Shown here: piece after piece, positions 6,503-61,907 of the stretch
How positions within the stretch are numbered: the stretch's first letter is position 1
How the letters are laid out: each line of letters begins with the position of its first letter
Origin: Adineta ricciae
Lineage: Eukaryota; Rotifera; Eurotatoria; Adinetida; Adinetidae
Reading direction: 5' to 3'
Length of the DNA: 64,000 nucleotides
Assembly: GCA_905250025.1 (NCBI GenBank)
Contig: CAJNOJ010000378.1
Span: 1 to 64,000, forward strand
The notes under the pieces: model-generated
What the model saw: the letters and a program-made list of their open reading frames with translations, nothing else
Database searches by the model: none
Told to the model about the DNA's origin: nothing
Made by a program: the position numbers and the translations under genes

Positions 6503-6587
6503 ACAATGCAACGGATAGAATTGTTTTCATAAACAATATTTCAAGTACAGTTTCTTGTATAATTCTTGCTATACCGATCGAACTACA

Positions 6588-7019
6588 ATGATGAAAATTT
6601 GTTTGATTATCTTCACAATTCTGTCTATGATCCATTTAACATTGTCCAATCCTGTTGAGGGTGGTAATACATATGGATGTGGACCGATGGGTATCAATAT
6701 TGACCAAGGTCTCAATCAAATTGATCGAGAAGAGATCATACCATGCTGTGTTGCTCACGACATATGCTATCGTAACTGTTCAATGTCTCGATTTCAGTGC
6801 GATTGTGATTTCTACAAATGCATTAAAAACCAATGTGAAAACAAGTTACCTCATGATTGCGCAGTATTTGCAATAAAGTTTTATACATTAGTCCGAATTG
6901 GAGGCATATCATCGTACCAACGTGATCAAAGAAGTAACTGTCCATCAAACTCTTTTTTCGAGACCTTTTGGAACAAAGAAAACATTGAAAAAGAACTAAA
7001 ATCATGTCTATTTTCATAA
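6588..7019 (+). CDS. Secreted phospholipase A2, copy 1
   Basis: Single exon, 143 residues. The first ATG is at 6588 (a second follows at once), and it begins a clear signal peptide (residues 1-20, MMKICLIIFTILSMIHLTLS). After a GCGPMG calcium-loop-like segment (residues 30-35) comes CCVAHDICY (residues 53-61), the active-site block of secreted PLA2: His57 is the catalytic base and Asp58 the calcium ligand. Many paired cysteines follow (CSMSRFQCDCDFYKC). The enzyme should hydrolyse the sn-2 acyl bond of phospholipids outside the cell. The short form and CCxxHD spacing fit small animal sPLA2s such as group XII-like types, but I cannot assign a group. A tandem paralogue lies 1.2 kb downstream on the same strand with a matching promoter. 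Confidence 0.85.
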   Translation: MMKICLIIFTILSMIHLTLSNPVEGGNTYGCGPMGINIDQGLNQIDREEIIPCCVAHDICYRNCSMSRFQCDCDFYKCIKNQCENKLPHDCAVFAIKFYTLVRIGGISSYQRDQRSNCPSNSFFETFWNKENIEKELKSCLFS

Positions 7020-8063: not shown

Positions 8064-8116
8064 TGACGTTAGACATACCCAAGCATGACTTACCGTTCGA
8101 TCTGACCACTATATAA
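8064..8116 (+). promoter_or_regulatory. Core promoter of phospholipase A2 copy 2
   Basis: TGACGT at 8064-8069, CATGACTTACCGT at 8084-8096 (identical to copy 1) and TATATAA at 8110-8116. The spacing from box 1 to box 2 is 20 nt in both copies, and box 2 to TATA differs by a few nt. The surrounding spacer has diverged, so the boxes look selectively kept. Confidence 0.6.
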
Positions 8117-8220
8117 CTAAAGCACAGCGTACACCTTATCGCCTACTTCGTGTCAAATATTTTCTACTTGAAATCAACTATATAGCGTTGTTGTCATTGC
8201 CAGTCTTCTGCAAAGTCACG

Positions 8221-8658
8221 TTGAAAACATACTCGCTCATCGTCAAAACTCTATCGCTGATTAGTCTGGCGTCATCTGTTTCTATCATCAGTGAGAATTC
8301 ACTCGGATGCGGACCCATGGGTGTGAATATAGATTTGGCTCTCAACAAAATCGATCGGAGTGAAATCATTCCATGCTGTGTCAGCCATGATGCATGTTAT
8401 CGCAATTGTTCGATGAGTCGACTGACATGCGACTGCACGTTCTATACATATATCAAGAATCGATGTGAAAATCACCTGCCAAACGACTGTAAAGTATTTG
8501 CTACGAATCTTTTCGCGATGGTTCGAATTGAAGGTGTACCATCATACAAACGTGACCAAGAAAGTAGCAAATGTCTTTCGAAAAACTATCAACGCGAATT
8601 AGATAAAATACTAATGCAACAAGAAACAGAACAGTATGTGAAATCATGTCCAAAATAA
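8221..8658 (+). CDS. Secreted phospholipase A2, copy 2 (start codon unclear)
   Basis: An open frame parallel to copy 1 encodes GCGPMGVNID, CCVSHDACY (the His/Asp active-site pair is kept) and CSMSRLTCDC, then the same cysteine pattern and a lysine-rich tail ending at 8658. The frame also covers a hydrophobic stretch matching the copy 1 signal peptide, but there is no in-frame ATG before the PMG of the calcium loop. The start given is the position that aligns with the copy 1 ATG. Either a non-ATG codon is used, a short upstream exon supplies the start, or the copy is losing function. The catalytic core and promoter boxes look intact. Substitutions fall evenly between the copies, suggesting an old duplication. 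Confidence 0.65.
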   Translation: MKTYSLIVKTLSLISLASSVSIISENSLGCGPMGVNIDLALNKIDRSEIIPCCVSHDACYRNCSMSRLTCDCTFYTYIKNRCENHLPNDCKVFATNLFAMVRIEGVPSYKRDQESSKCLSKNYQRELDKILMQQETEQYVKSCPK

Positions 8659-8880: not shown

Positions 8881-10929
8881 CTAAATAAGATTTGGAATTA
8901 ATAACTCATAACTGACAAATCGTCTTCCTTCTTTGTGTTTTTTGCCGCTTTCTAACCACAGTCGAGTTTTCAATGGTTTTGTTCCGATTTCTTCTTCTCC
9001 AACTTCTCTCTTCGCTGAACAAGAACCACGATGAGAATGTCGATGTATTGGAGATCTCGATCCTCCCTGTCCGTCCTCCGTTGATGTTGGACCTAAATCT
9101 GTCGCAGCTGCATTTTGGTCTTTCGATTTCGAATGACGACGGAAAAGGTCAGTGGTCGCATTGTCATAAACTGTTGAATTGGTTTCTTCGCATATTTCGA
9201 AATAACACCAGTTTCGATTGGAAAGTAACTTTTTGTGTGCTATCTTTCTTCCTGTTTCAGGTAAACGTGGGAAAAAATCAATTAGTTCTTCATCGGTATT
9301 ATCGATTGGATGCCATTTTGTCTTAACATAATGAGCGACACGAAGTGCTCGTCGGGATGGTGGAATATTCACGATGGCCGAAGAAATAACTTGATACATC
9401 AATTTACTATCATGAATTGGTATCAATCCTGTTTGGTTTCTTGTTTGAAATCGACTTATTCCACAGCAATGTACGTCACCACTGAAGAACGTGATTCTGA
9501 TTCGTTTGTTTTCAGCTAATTCTTGAAATTGTGCTAAGGCACGATTGCGTTCATCGATATGCGCTTTATGGGTCCATTCATCGAGAAGATCATCGTACAA
9601 TTCGGGTAAACCAAATATTGAGTTCGTCTGTTTAACAACGGGAAGATGTCGGTATTTGTTAGGAAGATTTTTGAGATGCTCGAATATTGTCTCAGCTAAT
9701 TTAAATCGAACAAACGAAAATGGAACAGGAAATAAAACGATCAAATGTGCAATGTCTGATGTTTGTTCTTCTAATTTATTAAATATTAATTTCCAACTTT
9801 GTGCGTGTTGAACTGTCTCTGTATTGCGTTCTGTACGTCCATCACAGCCAACCAGAAGTAAATCTGGTCCACATCGAGAAAGAAAATTGTATCCTTGATA
9901 GCCGAATAAGCCGTGATCTCGAGCTTTTTCTTTTGTTGTTTGATGTTGAAACAGTAGACGAAGTTTTTGTGCTGCATTAAATAGACCCGTCATCATTGGA
10001 CTATCATGAAGTAGAGGAGGATATGATCCTGCTCCATCGAATATATCATGATCATCCCACATCATCACACTTGGAATTGACGCTAAAGCATTTTTAACTT
10101 CTGGTCGTTCCCAGTTTTGTACATAAGAATTGAAATAATATTCCTCAACTTGTTCACGTAAATCATCTCGATAATCACAGGTCCACTTCGAATTCCATTC
10201 CATTTCCACCCATTCTTTGAGGTACGGGATATCTTCAAACATAAAATCAATATAATTTTGATCCCCACCCCATATTAAGATATGCAGAGGTGTTTCATTG
10301 TGAACAGAATTTAAATGTTCCCAAACGTCACCGAACGTCAAATCGGATTTTGTTTGTTCAGGTACCGTGGCATCGAAGCCATTGCAAGAGAAAAATCCAC
10401 CACGCCATTTTTGATTGTAGCGTGGTATATGAAATACGCCTTCGGTTACTCGATCACCCCAATTCATTTTCCAGTGAATTTTATCATCACCTTCACCATC
10501 ACGTAATTCTACGGAGATGTTTACACGATAAGCACGCATGTTAAAAATATTCTCATATAAAACTTCCCAACTATAGTCTAACTTTGGTTCACAGAAGAAA
10601 TCAATTGTTGGCTGATCGAATGAAATTTCACGAAATATCAGTGCACTTCCGTACCATAGCATTTGATTTAAATCAGTAGTTAAAAATTGATAATAAGGTC
10701 CAAGGGCTGGACCGGGTCGTTGAGGTGGACGAGTAATGTGAGGTGATTTCAATGAGACCGGAGTTGGAGCAGGTAAATCTTCTATCGTCGTCGTTGTTGG
10801 TTTTGGTGTAGGACAATCCTCACTATGTTGAGGGTGTGGATTGACAGGATTCGGTGCATTTGCATCTAAATCACCATTTTTATCCTCTACACATCCATGA
10901 ATATCTTTTTCAGATATTTCGTCAGCCAT
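8881..10929 (-). CDS. PhoD-like phosphatase (metallophosphatase), intronless
   Basis: One uninterrupted frame of 682 residues from the ATG at 10929. The N-terminal about 75 residues are Pro/Asp-rich and look disordered. Metal-binding blocks of the PhoD superfamily are visible: GGDQNYID (221-228), WDDHDIFDG (291-299) and SGDVHCCG (483-490). In this family these bind a bimetallic centre that cleaves phosphoesters. No signal peptide is seen, so it is probably cytosolic, like the PhoD-like proteins of fungi, oomycetes and amoebae. It has no introns in 2 kb, while most neighbours have one about every 100-300 bp. That may reflect retroposition or acquisition from elsewhere. The physiological substrate is unknown. 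It is convergent with phospholipase copy 2, with 222 bp between the stop codons. Confidence 0.85.
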   Translation of the reverse strand: MADEISEKDIHGCVEDKNGDLDANAPNPVNPHPQHSEDCPTPKPTTTTIEDLPAPTPVSLKSPHITRPPQRPGPALGPYYQFLTTDLNQMLWYGSALIFREISFDQPTIDFFCEPKLDYSWEVLYENIFNMRAYRVNISVELRDGEGDDKIHWKMNWGDRVTEGVFHIPRYNQKWRGGFFSCNGFDATVPEQTKSDLTFGDVWEHLNSVHNETPLHILIWGGDQNYIDFMFEDIPYLKEWVEMEWNSKWTCDYRDDLREQVEEYYFNSYVQNWERPEVKNALASIPSVMMWDDHDIFDGAGSYPPLLHDSPMMTGLFNAAQKLRLLFQHQTTKEKARDHGLFGYQGYNFLSRCGPDLLLVGCDGRTERNTETVQHAQSWKLIFNKLEEQTSDIAHLIVLFPVPFSFVRFKLAETIFEHLKNLPNKYRHLPVVKQTNSIFGLPELYDDLLDEWTHKAHIDERNRALAQFQELAENKRIRITFFSGDVHCCGISRFQTRNQTGLIPIHDSKLMYQVISSAIVNIPPSRRALRVAHYVKTKWHPIDNTDEELIDFFPRLPETGRKIAHKKLLSNRNWCYFEICEETNSTVYDNATTDLFRRHSKSKDQNAAATDLGPTSTEDGQGGSRSPIHRHSHRGSCSAKREVGEEEIGTKPLKTRLWLESGKKHKEGRRFVSYELLIPNLI

Positions 10930-11862
10930 ATCAATATGCGAATTGACGAAAATTCGAAATATTCTACAAGATAAATCAATTGGGAATTTTTATTTCATCA
11001 CTTATCTGAACAGTAGCAACAACAATTGTAGATTATACTTTACGAACAAATAGATTTAATTTCTCTGTGAACAACTCAATTAACTCTTTCGTATGAAAGA
11101 ATGTTTCTTTTTCGTAGAGTATTTGTTTTGTTCACCGTCGGTTCAAAGAGTATGTTTAAGGATCTGTTAGACACATAACGACTACAATGATTACAACACA
11201 TATATGTAATACTTGTCGAGAATCATTTCGGAACGAGTATTTATTAATCTCTATCCAATGTTAGAACATATCATATGTGTTGGTCTACTGTTGCATTGGA
11301 TTAAAGCTATGTGTACAAATAATGTGAGTGTGAGCAAACAGAGATAAATACATCCATGCGTTCTTTGATTCGTTGTCTGAACGAATAACCGAACAGTATC
11401 TTGTGTGATTATCTATATGAACGTTAGATGGCGTGGATGTACTCCGATATAATCTGGTTATATGAAGAGAGAAGGATGAGAACTTCGAACTTGTGTTCAG
11501 TATGTTTGATTGATCAATCGAATGCGTGATTATTTATTAGCGAAAGTAGAGAATAGGTGCGATATTGAATAATTCAAAGGAAATTCTTATTGTATCGTAC
11601 TTTCTTGACGTATTTATATATGTACATAGTGAATTAGTTGATTTTCTGTAATAGAATAAGAATAAGTTATTGGAACTGTGTCAATGTTATCTTGTATAAG
11701 AAATGTTACTTTTCTTTCCAAAAGTAAATTTGAAACAGTACGGTATCCAAGTGTCTTTAGATGTCAGTGTAGTTTTCTTTTGATTCTTATTGGTTGTTTC
11801 GAGAAAGTCTTTTCATTTCTCCTCCTGATCATTGTTTGTTACTGACAAAAATAAAGGAAAGG
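10930..11862. other. Divergent intergenic region
   Basis: Shared 5' region of the PhoD-like gene and ZMYND12. AT-rich; no open frame, repeat or RNA gene recognised. Confidence 0.5.
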
Positions 11863-54125: not shown

Positions 54126-56274
54126 GATGTGAAAACGAGGAGTTCTAGTTGCAATCAAATATCGTCTGTTTACAATTGAAGTTTTTGTGCGAATGAATCG
54201 AATTAGAAGTACAAATCTTTTTCATCGTGGTGTTCGAAACTCTTGGGATATGATAGAGCCAATTTTTAATCATATCAACGTGCAATATGAAAAATAAAAC
54301 TGGTCTTTGGAGAAATATTACTGACGTATACGGCTTTCGTATAATATCAATAATTTATTATGTAAGAAAAAAGAAATATTGATTTTTTTTCATTAATGTG
54401 TTTGGGGAAATTGTTTTGCTGAAAAATAAATATGTTCTATTTATGAATTATGGATGAGTACCGAGAAACAGTAGACCCTCTACAGACGATAATGACGTAC
54501 ATTCGTAGTGATTTCCCATTTGTGTATTTACAACAACACTTGAAGATTTACAGTGATATAATTTCTATTTATATGGCTTCTAGAAGGAAGGACTGGAAGT
54601 TCTTCAAGAAACTTCACGAAATAACGTGTAAGATTTGTATACGAAATCATTTTTAGTCGATAAAAAGATTTCGTTCTGCCAATATGTGATAAATAATCAA
54701 ATCCAATTAAGATATGCCATTGAAATTATCGGATAACTCAAACACACTTACTCGATCTAGAATATATGTTCCTTTGAATAATTTATTTATTTTAAATCAC
54801 TTATCTGCTTCATTTTGTTGCGCTTTCATAAAAAATACAGACTGAATTCACACTTATATGATTTCTTTGTAATCCATTGGAAATTTTCAACAGATATTTT
54901 TGCTTTAACATTAATATTCGTGCATATATTTCGATGATTTTGCCAATACTCTCATTGTCGTATTAGATCTCACATCACAAAATGCTTCATGAATTAATAA
55001 ACGAATCGTTTGATGTCATTGTCATAATCATGCCATTGATTCTTATATAAAGTTGAAGAACAACATTACTGTGAGCAAAGAATGATTCAGTTCGTTGTCA
55101 TTTAACCAACTATTGCAATGAATCAATTCCCTACTCACACTTCCATCGTTCAATATCTTATGTATGAGTAAATGTATAAGTCGCGTAAATCTTCATTCGA
55201 ATATAACATTTAAACAAACGATACGCAGTAGGATTCAAAATACTTCGCGAAATTTTTGTTTACATGTTATATTTGGCGTTTATTGAAATGCTTCTTCATG
55301 TAGATCATTGTAACAAGAATGGTAATAGAATAGCTTGTCGTATAATTGTATTCGTTTGAGTTCTGTCACTCGATTCAAAAGTATGAATCCAATATGGATC
55401 AATAAATGACACATTTGATGGGTATGGCATAGAGGCAGTATGATTTAGCCACATTTTGTATTGATCAAAACTTGAAATATGTTGTTATTTTGAGCAGCTA
55501 AATGAGACATGACTGTTGATTAAACACTACCATACTGTATGTGGTTATTCCCTTGAAACAATTGGTAGATGAGTAATTGAGAAGAAAGTTCAACAGAAAG
55601 GAAGATTTAAACAAGATGATCGCGCATGATGTGTATTCAACTATTCTAACGCGTAGAATATCACAACTATTGAATACAAAACAATGCAGATTGTTTGATC
55701 ACTGGTAAACAGCTCACATGATATTTAAATTCAAATATCCTACCGTGAAAGTTATATAGTAGAGTATATATAAATGAATGATTATAGTTATATTCAGATA
55801 CGTTCGATGATAATATACGTATATTGAAAACAAAGAAGTTACAGATATCAGTGTGTTTAAAATGTGATTGTGACGAATTATGAGAGTGAATGTCTATGAC
55901 TTGCGACATGATGGTGTGTTGTGACATCTACACACTCATAATCGTGTCGTTTCTTTATTGAACACAACTTATATAGGAAATATCGCGCATAGCATAACAA
56001 AGAGAGGGCAAGGTCAATATCTATGAACAGGTCGCATAGGTGAACTATAGATATACCCTGACCGTTACAGTGATGACTTTCAAAATTTACAAAACCAAAA
56101 TTATTTATATTAGGAAACATAGTTGGTTAGTCCAGCGATCGAAAATATCAGATATTTATCGTTATCACTATTTCGACAACGATTGAATGTAAGGTCATTA
56201 ACAATTAATCAAAAATATATTATTGTCATTTCGATATGATCGTGATTTATGCGAAATATTCTGAAAAAAGCTAT
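54126..56274. other. Intergenic region
   Basis: Upstream of the polycystin gene; very AT-rich. A 68-codon frame at 54450-54656 is unrecognised and has no exon partners. No repeat family or RNA gene identified. Confidence 0.5.
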
Positions 56275-57565
56275 TCCTAGGACGAACGTTCCGGCCTCCG
56301 GATCCACCAGGAAAGCACCCCTTTTCCGGCTCATTCCGACCCGTTCTGGCCATATCCGACAGATTCCTCACGGAAAACCGTAGGAATGTTGAAGCAGTGT
56401 TCCAGACCGGAATACCCCGGAAACGGATCCTCGATGTTCCCACTCATTCCATTACCCGGTTTCCTACAATATCCGCACGGAAAACAGCCAGGCCGCCTAC
56501 ATCCGATAAGACAGACCACCCAATAAAACAACCGGATCCCGCCATAAGCCTACGGAAACCAAAAAAATGCAAACCTGCAAAAAGTTGCCCGCATATTTCC
56601 AACAAAAAACGCAATATTCCCGCAGCAGTACACGTATACGGCCGTTTCCGAAAACCAAACTCCGCCAATAACCAACGGGAACCCATCTAAACCCAGGAAA
56701 CGTAAACCACCGGGAGAACACATAAACGCCCAATTCCCACCATTTCCATCGTTCTTTCACCAGCAATATCCAATTTCTGCCATAAAAATCACATAAAAAA
56801 CACCATCCTACGCCACAGTCTTACCAAACAACTCATCCCAAATACCAAAGGCAACACAGAACTCCACGCACAAGCCACTTATAAATGCAGAAAGCAAACT
56901 TCGCGATTACAATCCACGTTTCAGCTTAAAACAAAACAAGCATAATCAACACACATAAGCTATCTTATAGCATTCCCAAAGCGATCACAATCATCATTCC
57001 AATTCAAAGCATATAAATCATAAATCATTCGGATGGATTGTAAATCCGATTACAATCCTGCAATCCGCTGTGTAATTCTGCAATCTGCTGTGCAATCCGC
57101 TGTGCAATCCATTGTGGAATCTTGCAATCCTCCGTGTAATCCACTTGTATGCGTGGGATTGGAGTGTAGTTCGATGAACAGGAGCGTTTGTGTTTCAGCT
57201 ATTGGGGCTGGGATTGTTTGAAATGCAGTGAAGGCTGTTTGGAGTTGCTCTGGTTGGCCTTAGGAGAATGGGTATGGACAGCATTGTGTTATGGGTTTTC
57301 GGTAGTATGGGAAGATGCGTTTTATTGGTTTTCGATAGGTGTGTTGTAGGATTTCGTCGGATTGGTTCGGTTTTCGTAGGTTCCGAGAGATCACGGTTCG
57401 TTGGGATTTTTCGGAAGTTGTTGATGGGATTCCTGACTTTTCCGTTTGGGTAGTGCTGGAACCGGACGGATTTTAACCGGTTGAATCCGATCTGGAATCT
57501 TGCTTCCATGAAATGTTCGGAAAAAACCGGCACCGGTCGGTTCCGGACCGGGTTTTTCGACATGG
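56275..57565. repeat. GC-richer, strand-asymmetric island (possible decayed inverted repeat)
   Basis: The base composition changes sharply at both edges. On the + strand the left part (to about 57020) is rich in A and C with many CCGGAA/TTCCGG words, and the right part (from about 57130) is rich in G and T with the complementary words (AACCGG, TTCGG). This is what two old arms of an inverted repeat would look like, although I could not align them base by base. The long open frames here on several strands come from the composition. No protein domain is recognised. Confidence 0.45.
57055..57150. repeat. Minisatellite, about 12-13 bp unit (TGCAATCCGCTG)
   Basis: Six to seven degenerate head-to-tail copies of TGCAATCCGCTG (variants TGCAATCTGCTG, TGCAATCCATTG, TGTAATCCACTTG). 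It lies at the point where the surrounding island switches strand composition. Confidence 0.7.
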
Positions 57566-58315
57566 GTAATACTATCCTTTCAGTAGAGGGTTTAGCGGCT
57601 ACTAGGCCGCGTTACTTGTTGATAACGACGAGAGAAGGAAACAAGAAAACGACTTATGTCGATCACAGTTCAAAGACAACTGCCTCTGCCAGATCTTACA
57701 AGTTCAAAGAGCGGTCAGACAGGCAGCATAGAGAGAAACCAGAGAGAAAGAGATCTATATATCATGGCATCGAACCGCACATAGGACATATAGATCTGAA
57801 CAAGAAGAAAGAAAGAAAGTTGACGATAACAATGTACTATCTGTTATCGCTAACACTAGGGCATGCTAGAAGGCATAAGCACGTCTAGTAAACTACGGCT
57901 TCAGAATATCTCGCTCAGGCCACTTTTGATGGAAACCCCGAAATATCTTCCAAATCCATCTCAGAATCAATCGGTTTTACAAAGTTCAGAATATTCTGTT
58001 GCACATTTTCATGAGGATTCAGAATATTACATTGATATTTAGGTTTGACCCAGTTCCCATAGAGAAAAATCAAGTTTCTGTGAAAGTGACCGTAAAACGT
58101 TGGTAGTATTTTTACTATCTACCATGGAGGATAAAAATAAAACTTCAGCTATATACTACCAGAATGATCAGCATCAAGAACTTGAGCAACGCTGAAGGTC
58201 TTATCAGAATCGGAGTATGTCATCGGATAGGCTGACGATTTTTCTGCAATACAGCGATATACTAATTTTATCGCATTTCTGAGATTTTCAAAATTCCGAC
58301 TCCGACAACCGTATC
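57566..58315. other. Non-coding stretch, nothing assigned
   Basis: Purine-rich from about 57600 to 57890 on the + strand, then ordinary AT-rich DNA. No domain, flanking duplication or second copy that would let me name an element. Confidence 0.4.
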
Positions 58316-59020: not shown

Positions 59021-61907
59021 TCAGAAATGATCTTGACATGAACACTCTCCATTGGAAAAATGATGAATTCGATTTGCATCTCGGATGATGATTTCACACC
59101 GACGCAGTTTCGTTATGAGTTTCGTAGCAGCATCTAAGAAAAGCACAACTATGACTGAATTTCAGTGCCAATATCGTTCACTTACGACAATCACCACAAA
59201 TACGAAGATTTTTACTGATTTGTATGATGGAAGGAGGTGGTTGTTGAATGAAGTTGAATGCGATCGCCAACTTTTCACTATGACCACACAACACACTTTC
59301 CACTGTTTCATCCTCTTTCACTGGACGAGTGATCCAACTGCTGTCGAATGTGTGACCATGTTCACGGAGCTCACACGATAAACGTTGCAGTTCTTCATAG
59401 ATCTCCTCTGACTGAGGATGAGAATGATCATGAGCTTTGAATCGCTAAAAAGAAGAATAACGCAACGAAGATCAACTTCAGCTCTCAGCTCCGTAACGTT
59501 TTCAAACAAATCCTACCACCAGTTGGTTGTTCACCGAAGTCCAAGATAAGCCAACTTTCACATTGTATCCAAACTGTTTGATTCTATTGGTTCGGATATC
59601 TCCCGCACGATGATGATCACCAATGGACGAATAAATATTTGACAAGAGAACGGAACCAGCTATGAGTGTGTTTTTCTCATCAGGGAACAATTGTTGCATT
59701 TTCTTGTAGATTCGATTAGACAGATTCGAGTCACGAACATTGCGTGCTCCAGACAACAATGTCGCTAAAATGAAACGTGAATGAAGAGATTGATCAAGAG
59801 TTTTCTCTACATTGGTAATGCTCACTGTACATAGCGGAGGAAGGTGGATTTGTCTTTTCATAATCTTCGATGATTGATTCTGCTTCATCAAACATTGCCA
59901 AACGACTCAAACAATCAACCTAACACATCAACATATATGGTCTCATTGAGATGAGGTCGAACAAAGAAACAAACCATTGTGGTCACAATCTTCTCTGTTT
60001 TCTTATGTATCTGGTCGAATATATGACGACATTCGTTCAGCAAACCTGTATGGGAGCAGGCATTCAACGCACATACGTGTACTACTTCGTTACACAAATC
60101 AGAAGAAATTCTTCTATACAGTTCCACAGCCTCAACACCCATCCCATTCAATCCGTATGCATTTACTAAAGAATCAAATATACAATTATTCGTTCATAAA
60201 ACATATATGTTCAGCTAAACATACTCATTGAACTATATGTCACCATATCTGGATCATCCAGTGATTCAAATATTTCCTTACTTTTTTCTATCGAACTACT
60301 TTTGCCCTAAACAAAATCAAAACAAACATACTTTCATTAGTTGTCACTAGAACGATGTTTTCTACTCGATCAACAACACTTACCCACATCGAAATCAGTG
60401 CATTTTGAATATTTCGACTACTTTTCATATGACTAGGTAACTGATCAACAATTGACTGAGATACTGAGCGTATGGCAATTTTTGCACAAACACCGATCAT
60501 TGAAAGACACACAACTTCATTTGGAAGAATTTGATCACTTTTCATTTGATCAAACAGCTGAAAACACTTGTCCAACTCGTCTAGTTGACTGTATCCATTG
60601 ATCATTGCATGATAAGTGAGAGCACTTTTTGATTTGACTTGACGAAACAAGCGTTCAGCATCATTGACCAGATCGAATTTCATCAACATGCGAATGGCTG
60701 ATGTGATAATGATATCATCGTTATAATAGGACTTGTTCATCTTGCGCAGAAGTTCTTTTCCTGTTTGTAATGCTCGATCATTAAACAGATGTGTACATGT
60801 GTTGAAGATGATAGTTAGTATGTTTCCATTAGGAGCCAGATCTATTTGATAAAATAAATCCAGTGCTTTTTCAAACATCTGGTTGTGATTGTAACCTAAC
60901 CAAATTCAATCGAATACTTCTGGTTAAGTGAAGCGGATGGCTCACCTTTCATCATGGCACCATAAGTGTAGATAGTTTTGTGTTTCATCTGGCGAAAGAG
61001 TTGCTCAGCTTCAACGACGTTTCCAAATTTCATCAACATAAAGATCGTCGAGTTCATCACTTTTCCAGAACCTTTCAAATCTTCAAGTAAATTAACGATT
61101 AACTGTTTTCCAATTCTTCTCGCACGATCATCACATATTTCAGAACATGCCTTTGATACCATCACAAATACACCTTCGTCCAACTTCAATTTGTTCTGTT
61201 CGTACAAGTTCAACACTTCTTTCGACTTTTTCATCGATATCAGCCCTAAACATCAGAACAGATTTATTTTTCAATCAGTTAAATAAAAATCTACCTTTGA
61301 ACAAAGTTGTATAAAGTGGATTCGTCTTCACCGGAATTGAGTTGAACAAACCGATTGCACTCTTCAAGTCGCCGGATTTCACTTCAAATAGAAACAACTT
61401 CTTATTGTCATTGTCGTTCGGCCATATGAGAGTGTCACACAAACGATAACCTTTGAGAATGTTCTCTTCGAAAAGTATGGGAAATGGATCATGAAACAGT
61501 CACAAGAGATGAGAAAATTGTTTCATTCTGATCTTTGCCACGAGTCAGCACGTCTCTCCTTCGCATCCTGTCGTTTGTTTTCACTCACTGTAGAAATGAA
61601 CAAGTGATGTTTGAATGAAAGGATTGTTGAGAGATTTGGGAGAGAGTTGTCGAACGATTCCAAGTCCACGTCGATAGTCTGGCAAATTACTGCACGCTTT
61701 GAGTGCCATGTTCAGAGCGAAATCATCAGCAGCGTGTGACTGCTTATCAAAAATGTCGAGAGCATGTCGAAATTGTTTGGAATCAATGAGTTTCTTCATT
61801 TGTGCATTTAACGTAGTTGAGGCATGACGAGCAGTAACGACGGTTGATATTTCATACAAGGGTAGAACGACACACCGAACTGTCAGTGAGCATTTACCAC
61901 AAAACAT
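59021..61907 (-). CDS. DYW-type PLS-class pentatricopeptide repeat protein (organelle RNA-editing-factor type)
   Basis: Ten exons (61907-61589, 61381-61295, 61245-60946, 60895-60384, 60306-60225, 60165-59975, 59919-59826, 59764-59520, 59444-59186, 59133-59021) sum to 2202 nt, exactly 733 codons. The N-terminus is Arg-rich with few acids, like a mitochondrial targeting peptide. PPR repeats of P/L/S type follow (FGNVVEAEQLFRQMKHKTIY, TYHAMINGYSQLDELDKCFQ, ALISMWGKSSSIEKSKEIFE), then E motifs (TTLLSGARNV, VLLSNIYSSIGDHHRAGDIR), a PG box (GLSWTSVNNQL, HPQSEEIYEEL) and a DYW cytidine-deaminase domain: HSEKLAIAF (H665, E667), CGDCH (C693, C696), IHHFSNGECSC and terminal DHF in place of DYW. In plants such proteins bind organelle RNA and convert C to U. 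The many small introns and upstream ctag acceptor (19 nt before the ATG) show adaptation to this genome. Confidence 0.92.

What the first reader, a model, noticed from the sequence alone, without database searches (positions are those of the whole stretch)
59021..61907. A land-plant-type DYW RNA-editing factor gene in an animal genome
The gene encodes PLS repeats, E and PG motifs and a DYW deaminase with both zinc-site signatures (HSE...CGDC and HH...CSC). Animals normally have only P-type PPR proteins. DYW proteins outside land plants are known in some protists and have been reported from bdelloid rotifers as likely horizontal transfers. My ten-exon model keeps frame to 733 codons and no residue of the deaminase signature is lost, which suggests selection for activity. 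The end reads DHF rather than DYW, so it could have an altered site preference.
Basis: partly seen in the sequence, partly recalled or inferred. Interest (0 to 1): 0.87.

Follow-up and report, generated by a model that had tools for sequence, protein, structure and literature searches.

The report
Plant-type RNA-editing gene in an animal
An animal genome, most likely that of a bdelloid rotifer, carries an intact-looking gene for a plant-style protein that in plants changes single letters of organelle RNA; such genes have been reported from rotifers before, but what they do in an animal appears untested.

Summary
On the minus strand, 61907..59021, ten exons joined by nine GT-AG introns encode 734 residues: five P-L-S triplets of PPR motifs, E1, E2, an eroded PG box and a full-length DYW deaminase (Pfam E 1.7e-33). 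The zinc ligands of both sites, the catalytic glutamate and the gating lysine of the solved Arabidopsis OTP86 DYW domain are all kept. The end reads DHF; structural work points to an effect on stability or efficiency, not on site choice. Neighbouring genes look animal (DM domain, polycystin, ornithine decarboxylase), and two verified introns of a neighbour are equally short, so contamination is unlikely. A bdelloid rotifer host is inferred, not shown. DYW proteins are already reported from the rotifers Adineta ricciae and Philodina roseola, so this is a new, complete genomic member of a known kind. The likeliest role is site-specific C-to-U editing of one or a few mitochondrial transcripts. 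Activity, target, transcript and phylogeny could not be tested. Against full plant-like function: 4 of 10 P/S motifs fit the PPR code, the PG box keeps 5 of 10 consensus residues, and the gene has the highest GC3 of 13 sequences compared.

The parts
59021..61907 (-). whole gene, 10 exons, 734-residue PLS-E1-E2-DYW protein
   Evidence: splice model without internal stop; Pfam PPR and DYW
61589..61907 (-). exon 1: N-terminal leader (5 K/R, 1 D/E in first 40 residues), motifs P-15, L-14 and start of S-13
61295..61381 (-). exon 2: rest of S-13 and start of P-12; preceded by the one long intron (207 nt)
   Evidence: the join gives a 31-residue S motif like three others
60946..61245 (-). exon 3: P-12, L-11, S-10 and start of P-9
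60384..60895 (-). exon 4: P-9 to S-4
60225..60306 (-). exon 5: rest of S-4 and start of P2
59975..60165 (-). exon 6: P2, L2, start of S2
59826..59919 (-). exon 7: S2 and start of E1
59517..59764 (-). exon 8: E1, E2 and most of the PG box
59186..59444 (-). exon 9: end of PG box, E+ motif, gating region, HSE and CGDC
59021..59133 (-). exon 10: end of the deaminase, HH...CSC second zinc site, DHF terminus and stop
59274..59282 (-). HSE, residues 666-668: zinc ligand H and catalytic E
   Evidence: aligned to H892 and E894 of OTP86
59187..59198 (-). CGDC, residues 694-697: two cysteine ligands of the catalytic zinc
   Evidence: aligned to C920 and C923 of OTP86
59036..59044 (-). CSC, residues 728-730: two ligands of the structural zinc
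   Evidence: aligned to C954 and C956 of OTP86

Best explanation
[quoted passage not shown] It was probably gained by horizontal transfer (from a land plant, or from a protist that carries such genes) and is now a settled host gene with short introns. Shown: the gene structure, the domain order and the complete metal and catalytic residues. Inferred: import into mitochondria, binding of one or a few transcripts by the PPR array with the target C four bases downstream of the base read by the last S motif, and deamination of that C to U by the protein alone.
For: Open 10-exon model; Pfam PPR, E+ and DYW above cut-offs; 72 of 134 residues identical to a synthetic PPR-DYW protein and 61 of 134 to OTP86, 47 of 108 to DYW1; 13 of 15 named OTP86 positions identical, among them the three protein ligands of zinc 1, the four of zinc 2, the catalytic E and K915 (residue roles from PMC7611903 passages); five PLS triplets plus E1 and E2. 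Host: 12 of 20 neighbouring ORFs scanned reach a Pfam cut-off, among them DM, polycystin, FAM161 and ELAPOR1-like domains. Precedents: single moss DYW proteins edit in E. coli (PMC6397227 abstract in listing); in Naegleria the DYW genes were found first and the editing later (PMC4758236 passage); Acrasis has 12 DYW ORFs and 2 confirmed sites out of 6 candidates tested (PMC4202320 section 21).
Against: No transcript, mitochondrial DNA or RNA of the host was available, so activity, location and target are untested. Only 4 of 10 P/S motifs carry a standard code pair. PG box keeps 5 of 10 consensus residues (consensus, counted by eye). R895 is K, H837 is V; W960 reads F and K823 reads V with a K next to it (and reading on from its ends). 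In columns where the three plant-derived references agree the window matches 33 of 48, against 33 of 34, 33 of 41 and 33 of 43 for each reference left out in turn. A codon-only gene finder trained on neighbours did not recover the gene (score 5.6, no introns); its synonymous-codon score was the lowest of 13 and its GC3 (0.351) the highest (neighbours 0.209-0.297, pooled 0.249, z 5.6).
Confidence: 0.6

Rival explanations
1. A PLS-DYW protein that is expressed and binds mitochondrial RNA but no longer deaminates, or does so only marginally; it would serve in RNA stability, processing or translation like P-class PPR proteins.
For: Eroded PG box (5 of 10), W960 to F, K823 position not kept, weak code fit. 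W960A and the K823-equivalent mutant reduce editing in the assays of PMC7611903 (section 7).
Against: All seven zinc ligands, the catalytic E and K915 are kept, which is not expected if catalysis were dispensable for long. F is not A, and OTP86 itself lacks the P of the PG box.
Confidence: 0.2
2. A recent, non-functional horizontal acquisition or a young pseudogene whose frame happens to be intact.
For: GC3 and synonymous-codon use differ from 12 neighbouring ORFs; no transcript data; only one sequence, so no test of selection.
Against: 734 codons open across ten exons with nine host-like introns; a recent copy would not be expected to have nine short host-like introns unless the donor had them.
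Confidence: 0.1
3. Contaminant or chimeric contig: the gene belongs to a plant or protist and was joined to animal DNA by assembly.
For: The last ORF with a Pfam match at cut-off before the gene lies at 45.4-46.1 kb and only 2 kb follow it, so a false join between about 54 and 59 kb is not formally excluded; the chunk 54401-57600 is joint most deviant of 20 in tetranucleotides (0.268).
Against: Eight of nine introns are 49-77 nt, and two neighbour introns verified against ornithine decarboxylase are 56 and 62 nt; the two chunks holding the gene deviate by 0.216 and 0.189, inside the range 0.153-0.268; DYW proteins are independently reported from rotifers.
Confidence: 0.05
4. An active DYW deaminase acting on nuclear or cytosolic RNA, or on foreign RNA as a defence, instead of mitochondrial RNA.
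For: No targeting predictor was run and the leader is short and only moderately basic; relatives of the DYW clade in bacteria are toxins (PMC3482391 passages).
Against: The PLS-E-DYW order is that of organelle editing factors, and the leader has 5 K/R against 1 D/E in 40 residues.
Confidence: 0.05

Closest known systems
Rotifer DYW-type PPR proteins (Adineta ricciae, Philodina roseola), reported in 2013 and used in the tree of PMC4202320
   Same: DYW domain of land-plant type in an animal nuclear gene; very likely the same family
   Different: The published sequences could not be compared (the 2013 paper is not held). Here the whole genomic gene with introns and PPR array is described.
Land-plant PLS-E1-E2-DYW editing factors (OTP86, DYW1, moss PPR56/PPR65)
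   Same: PLS triplets, E1, E2, E+ and full DYW domain with all zinc ligands, catalytic E and gate lysine
   Different: Eroded PG box, DHF end, weak code fit, host with animal genes, nine short introns
DYW proteins of Naegleria, Acrasis and Physarum
   Same: Plant-type DYW factors outside plants, with C-to-U editing known in these protists
   Different: Most Physarum members have LS-type arrays, whereas this one has PLS triplets; no editing shown here
Animal P-class PPR proteins (PTCD3/mS39, PRORP)
   Same: PPR repeats; weak overlapping Pfam matches (mS39 E 2.2e-8, PRORP region E 3.1e-7)
   Different: These have no L and S motifs and no deaminase (recalled)

Membership tests
PLS-class DYW-type PPR editing factors | tandem P-L-S triplets ending in P2-L2-S2 | tested here: met
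   15 motifs in five PLS triplets, four S motifs of 31 residues and S2 of 34 (hand-placed anchors); PDB alignment to a synthetic PLS-DYW protein
PLS-class DYW-type PPR editing factors | E1, E2 and E+ motifs | tested here: met
   E+ Pfam 25.6 bits against cut-off 24; E1 and E2 aligned to the synthetic protein
PLS-class DYW-type PPR editing factors | PG box PGxSWIEVxGxxHxF | tested here: inconclusive
   window VGLSWTSVNNQLVRF: 5 of 10 specified residues match (consensus; counted by eye)
PLS-class DYW-type PPR editing factors | DYW deaminase with HxE...CxxC catalytic zinc site | tested here: met
   Pfam E 1.7e-33; H666, E668, C694, C697 align to OTP86 H892, E894, C920, C923
PLS-class DYW-type PPR editing factors | second zinc site and gate lysine | tested here: met
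   H698, H721, C728, C730 and K689 align to OTP86 H924, H947, C954, C956 and K915
PLS-class DYW-type PPR editing factors | C-terminal D-[YFS]-W triplet | tested here: not met
   ends D-H-F; D kept, W replaced by F. The triplet names the family but OTP86 ends DSW, and the domain-level criteria are met
PLS-class DYW-type PPR editing factors | P and S motifs with standard code pairs | tested here: inconclusive
   4 of 10 P/S motifs (code from PMC10482289 passages)
PLS-class DYW-type PPR editing factors | C-to-U editing activity on an organelle transcript | not testable with these tools
   no host mitochondrial DNA, RNA or protein assay
Rotifer DYW clade | groups with Adineta and Philodina DYW domains in a tree | not testable with these tools
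   their sequences are not held; the viral, GTDB and plasmid searches gave no relatives
Rotifer DYW clade | host is a rotifer | tested here: inconclusive
   animal neighbours; no marker of rotifers tested positive, and the telomere-like repeat recalled for bdelloids is absent
Bacterial DYW-clade toxins | toxin architecture, no PPR or gating region | tested here: not met
   PPR array and E motifs present; no bacterial relative found

The most novel reading that the evidence does not exclude
An animal uses a plant-type, single-protein C-to-U editing enzyme in its mitochondria, so that at least one mitochondrial codon of this animal is correct only after editing; and if the host proves not to be a rotifer, a second animal lineage has acquired this machinery independently.
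Probability: 0.4. Interest if true: 0.85.

Novelty: new member of a known kind. Interest (0 to 1): 0.5.

Why it matters
Plant organelle editing and animal RNA editing are usually taken as separate worlds. A complete animal gene with an intact deaminase makes the question whether any animal edits its mitochondrial RNA by the plant mechanism directly testable: by DNA/RNA comparison in the host, and by expressing the gene in E. coli, where single moss DYW factors work. In Naegleria the same reasoning led from DYW genes to the discovery of editing sites.

Tried and rejected
Relatives in other collections: none confirmed in IMG/VR with one sequence (5 stretches matched a pattern, 0 confirmed) or with an alignment (22 stretches, 0 confirmed), in GTDB genomes (65 stretches, 0 confirmed), or in plasmids; the phage and E. 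coli collections were not searched. NCBIfam gave no family for the DYW domain. No tRNA or Rfam family in the window. No bdelloid-type telomere repeat (TGTGGG, recalled) in the window.

Gene finding with neighbour codon usage did not recover the gene and gave ten neighbour introns of 40-350 nt, of which only the two in ornithine decarboxylase were checked against a homologue; the other eight were not used. A suspected foldback element at 56.2-57.7 kb was not supported (best inverted match E 0.18).

No tree was built: only three DYW sequences (one synthetic, two of Arabidopsis) could be obtained. DHF as a sign of altered site preference was considered and rejected.

Literature: nine searches of an open-licence library showed no report of C-to-U editing in a rotifer; for only 25 of 151 and 30 of 162 papers were listed, so this is not proof that none is in print. 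The 2013 survey that first reported the rotifer proteins was not held and is known to me only through citations and recall.

Full report
Observation. On the minus strand between 61907 and 59021 ten exons (319, 87, 300, 512, 82, 191, 94, 248, 259 and 113 nt) joined by nine GT-AG introns (207, 49, 50, 77, 59, 55, 61, 72 and 52 nt) give an open reading frame of 734 residues and a stop. Pfam finds PPR (E 5.2e-37), the E+ motif (E 9.9e-6) and DYW_deaminase (E 1.7e-33, residues 641-733, profile 1-92 of 93), all above the curated cut-offs. The best PDB match is a synthetic PPR-DYW protein (9kfx, E 2e-106), followed among deaminases by OTP86 (7o4e, E 6e-35) and DYW1 (7w86, E 9.7e-26).

Anatomy. With anchors placed by hand, the array reads P-L-S five times, ending in P2-L2-S2, then E1, E2, PG box and DYW. 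Four S motifs have exactly 31 residues, one of them created by the join over the long first intron, which supports that splice. The first 40 residues hold 5 K/R and 1 D/E, compatible with a mitochondrial leader; no targeting predictor was available.

Deaminase. Identity is 72 of 134 aligned residues to the synthetic protein, 61 of 134 to OTP86 and 47 of 108 to DYW1. Of 15 OTP86 positions mapped, 13 are identical: S828, G891, H892, S893, E894, K915, C920, C923, H924, H947, C954, C956 and D958; H837 is V and R895 is K. The roles come from passages of PMC7611903 and its section 7. Read on beyond the alignment ends, W960 is F, and K823 is V with a K as the next residue. In columns where the three plant-derived references agree, the window matches 33 of 48; each reference, left out in turn, matches 33 of 34, 33 of 41 and 33 of 43. 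So the domain is more divergent than these references, but the divergence spares the zinc ligands and the catalytic centre.

The ending. In OTP86 the residue before the last points to solvent and W960 packs on the zinc ligand H924; W960A and D958A reduce activity, and changing the middle residue had no effect in OTP86 and DYW1 but a severe one in moss PPR65 (PMC7611903 section 7). DHF keeps D and an aromatic last residue. The reading of DHF as altered site preference is not supported.

Target. By the code T/S+N:A, T/S+D:G, N+D:U, N+S:C, N+N:Y for P and S motifs (PMC10482289 passages), 4 of 10 P/S motifs are standard: U at -18, G at -15, U at -7, A at -6; the other six pairs (TT, NT, GN, TS, HN, TS) are not. 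This is too weak to name a target, and no host mitochondrial DNA was at hand.

Host. No genome is held for the window. Of 20 neighbouring ORFs scanned, 14 gave a Pfam match at E 0.01 or better and 12 reached the curated cut-off, among them DM, polycystin (two ORFs), FAM161, ELAPOR1-like, nucleotide-sugar transporter, molybdenum cofactor synthesis, DUF3504 and ornithine decarboxylase (two ORFs). The DM domain is, from recall, an animal feature. The spliced ornithine decarboxylase aligns to animal enzymes (human 1d7k, E 6.6e-57) across two introns of 56 and 62 nt, the size of eight of the nine DYW introns. The two 3.2-kb chunks that hold the gene are not outliers in tetranucleotides (0.216 and 0.189; range of 20 chunks 0.153-0.268). 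On the other side, GC3 of the gene is 0.351 against 0.209-0.297 in 12 neighbouring ORFs (pooled 0.249, z 5.6) and its synonymous-codon score is the lowest of 13, and a codon-only gene finder trained on neighbours missed it. This fits a gene of foreign origin that has taken on host introns but not fully host codon use; it could also reflect low expression or the GC-richer end of the window (0.37-0.43 from 56 kb on). That the host is a bdelloid rotifer is inferred from the reports below, not tested.

Known or new. Passages of PMC4202320 name DYW-type PPR proteins in Adineta ricciae and Philodina roseola, place the rotifer clade with Naegleria (0.93), and favour horizontal transfer from early land plants; PMC5295000 also names rotifers (passage). 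The original 2013 survey is not held. Nine searches of the open-licence library gave no paper showing C-to-U editing in a rotifer (two of the listings were capped). No relatives were confirmed in IMG/VR, GTDB genomes or plasmids. The gene is therefore a new member of a known kind.

Mechanism. Most likely the protein enters mitochondria, its PLS array binds one or a few transcripts so that the last S motif sits four bases before a cytidine, and the DYW domain deaminates that C to U without partners, as single moss DYW factors do in E. coli (PMC6397227, abstract in listing). Shown here: gene, domains, complete active-site residues. Inferred: origin by transfer, location, target, activity. Precedents for the inference: in Naegleria the DYW genes were found before the editing (PMC4758236 passage), and Acrasis has 12 DYW ORFs and 2 of 6 tested candidate sites confirmed (PMC4202320 section 21). 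Most Physarum DYW proteins have LS-type arrays, so the present PLS array is closer to land plants in that respect.

Verdict. Real, intact-looking, of a kind reported before, with an open and now easily tested question about its function.

Noticed in passing
window 8881-10989 (-): Single-exon-like ORF with a strong PhoD_2 phosphatase match (E 9.8e-65); from recall this family is mainly fungal and protist, so it may be a second foreign gene.
   Followed up: no
window 56260-57600: GC-richer stretch (0.431 for 56001-58000), C-rich in its first half and G-rich in its second, with short imperfect repeats at 57053-57142; a foldback element was not supported (best inverted match E 0.18).
   Followed up: partly
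window 6519-7019 and 8089-8658 (+): Two similar secreted phospholipase A2-like ORFs in tandem; the first matches PLA2G12 below the cut-off (E 1.7e-6), the second was compared by eye only.
   Followed up: no
window 59021-61907 (-): GC3 of the DYW gene (0.351) lies above that of 12 neighbouring ORFs (0.209-0.297), and its synonymous-codon score is the lowest of 13.
   Followed up: partly
window 59186 / 59133: The last intron splits the codon of the second-zinc histidine directly after CGDC, so that a gene finder without this splice would lose the second zinc site.
   Followed up: yes
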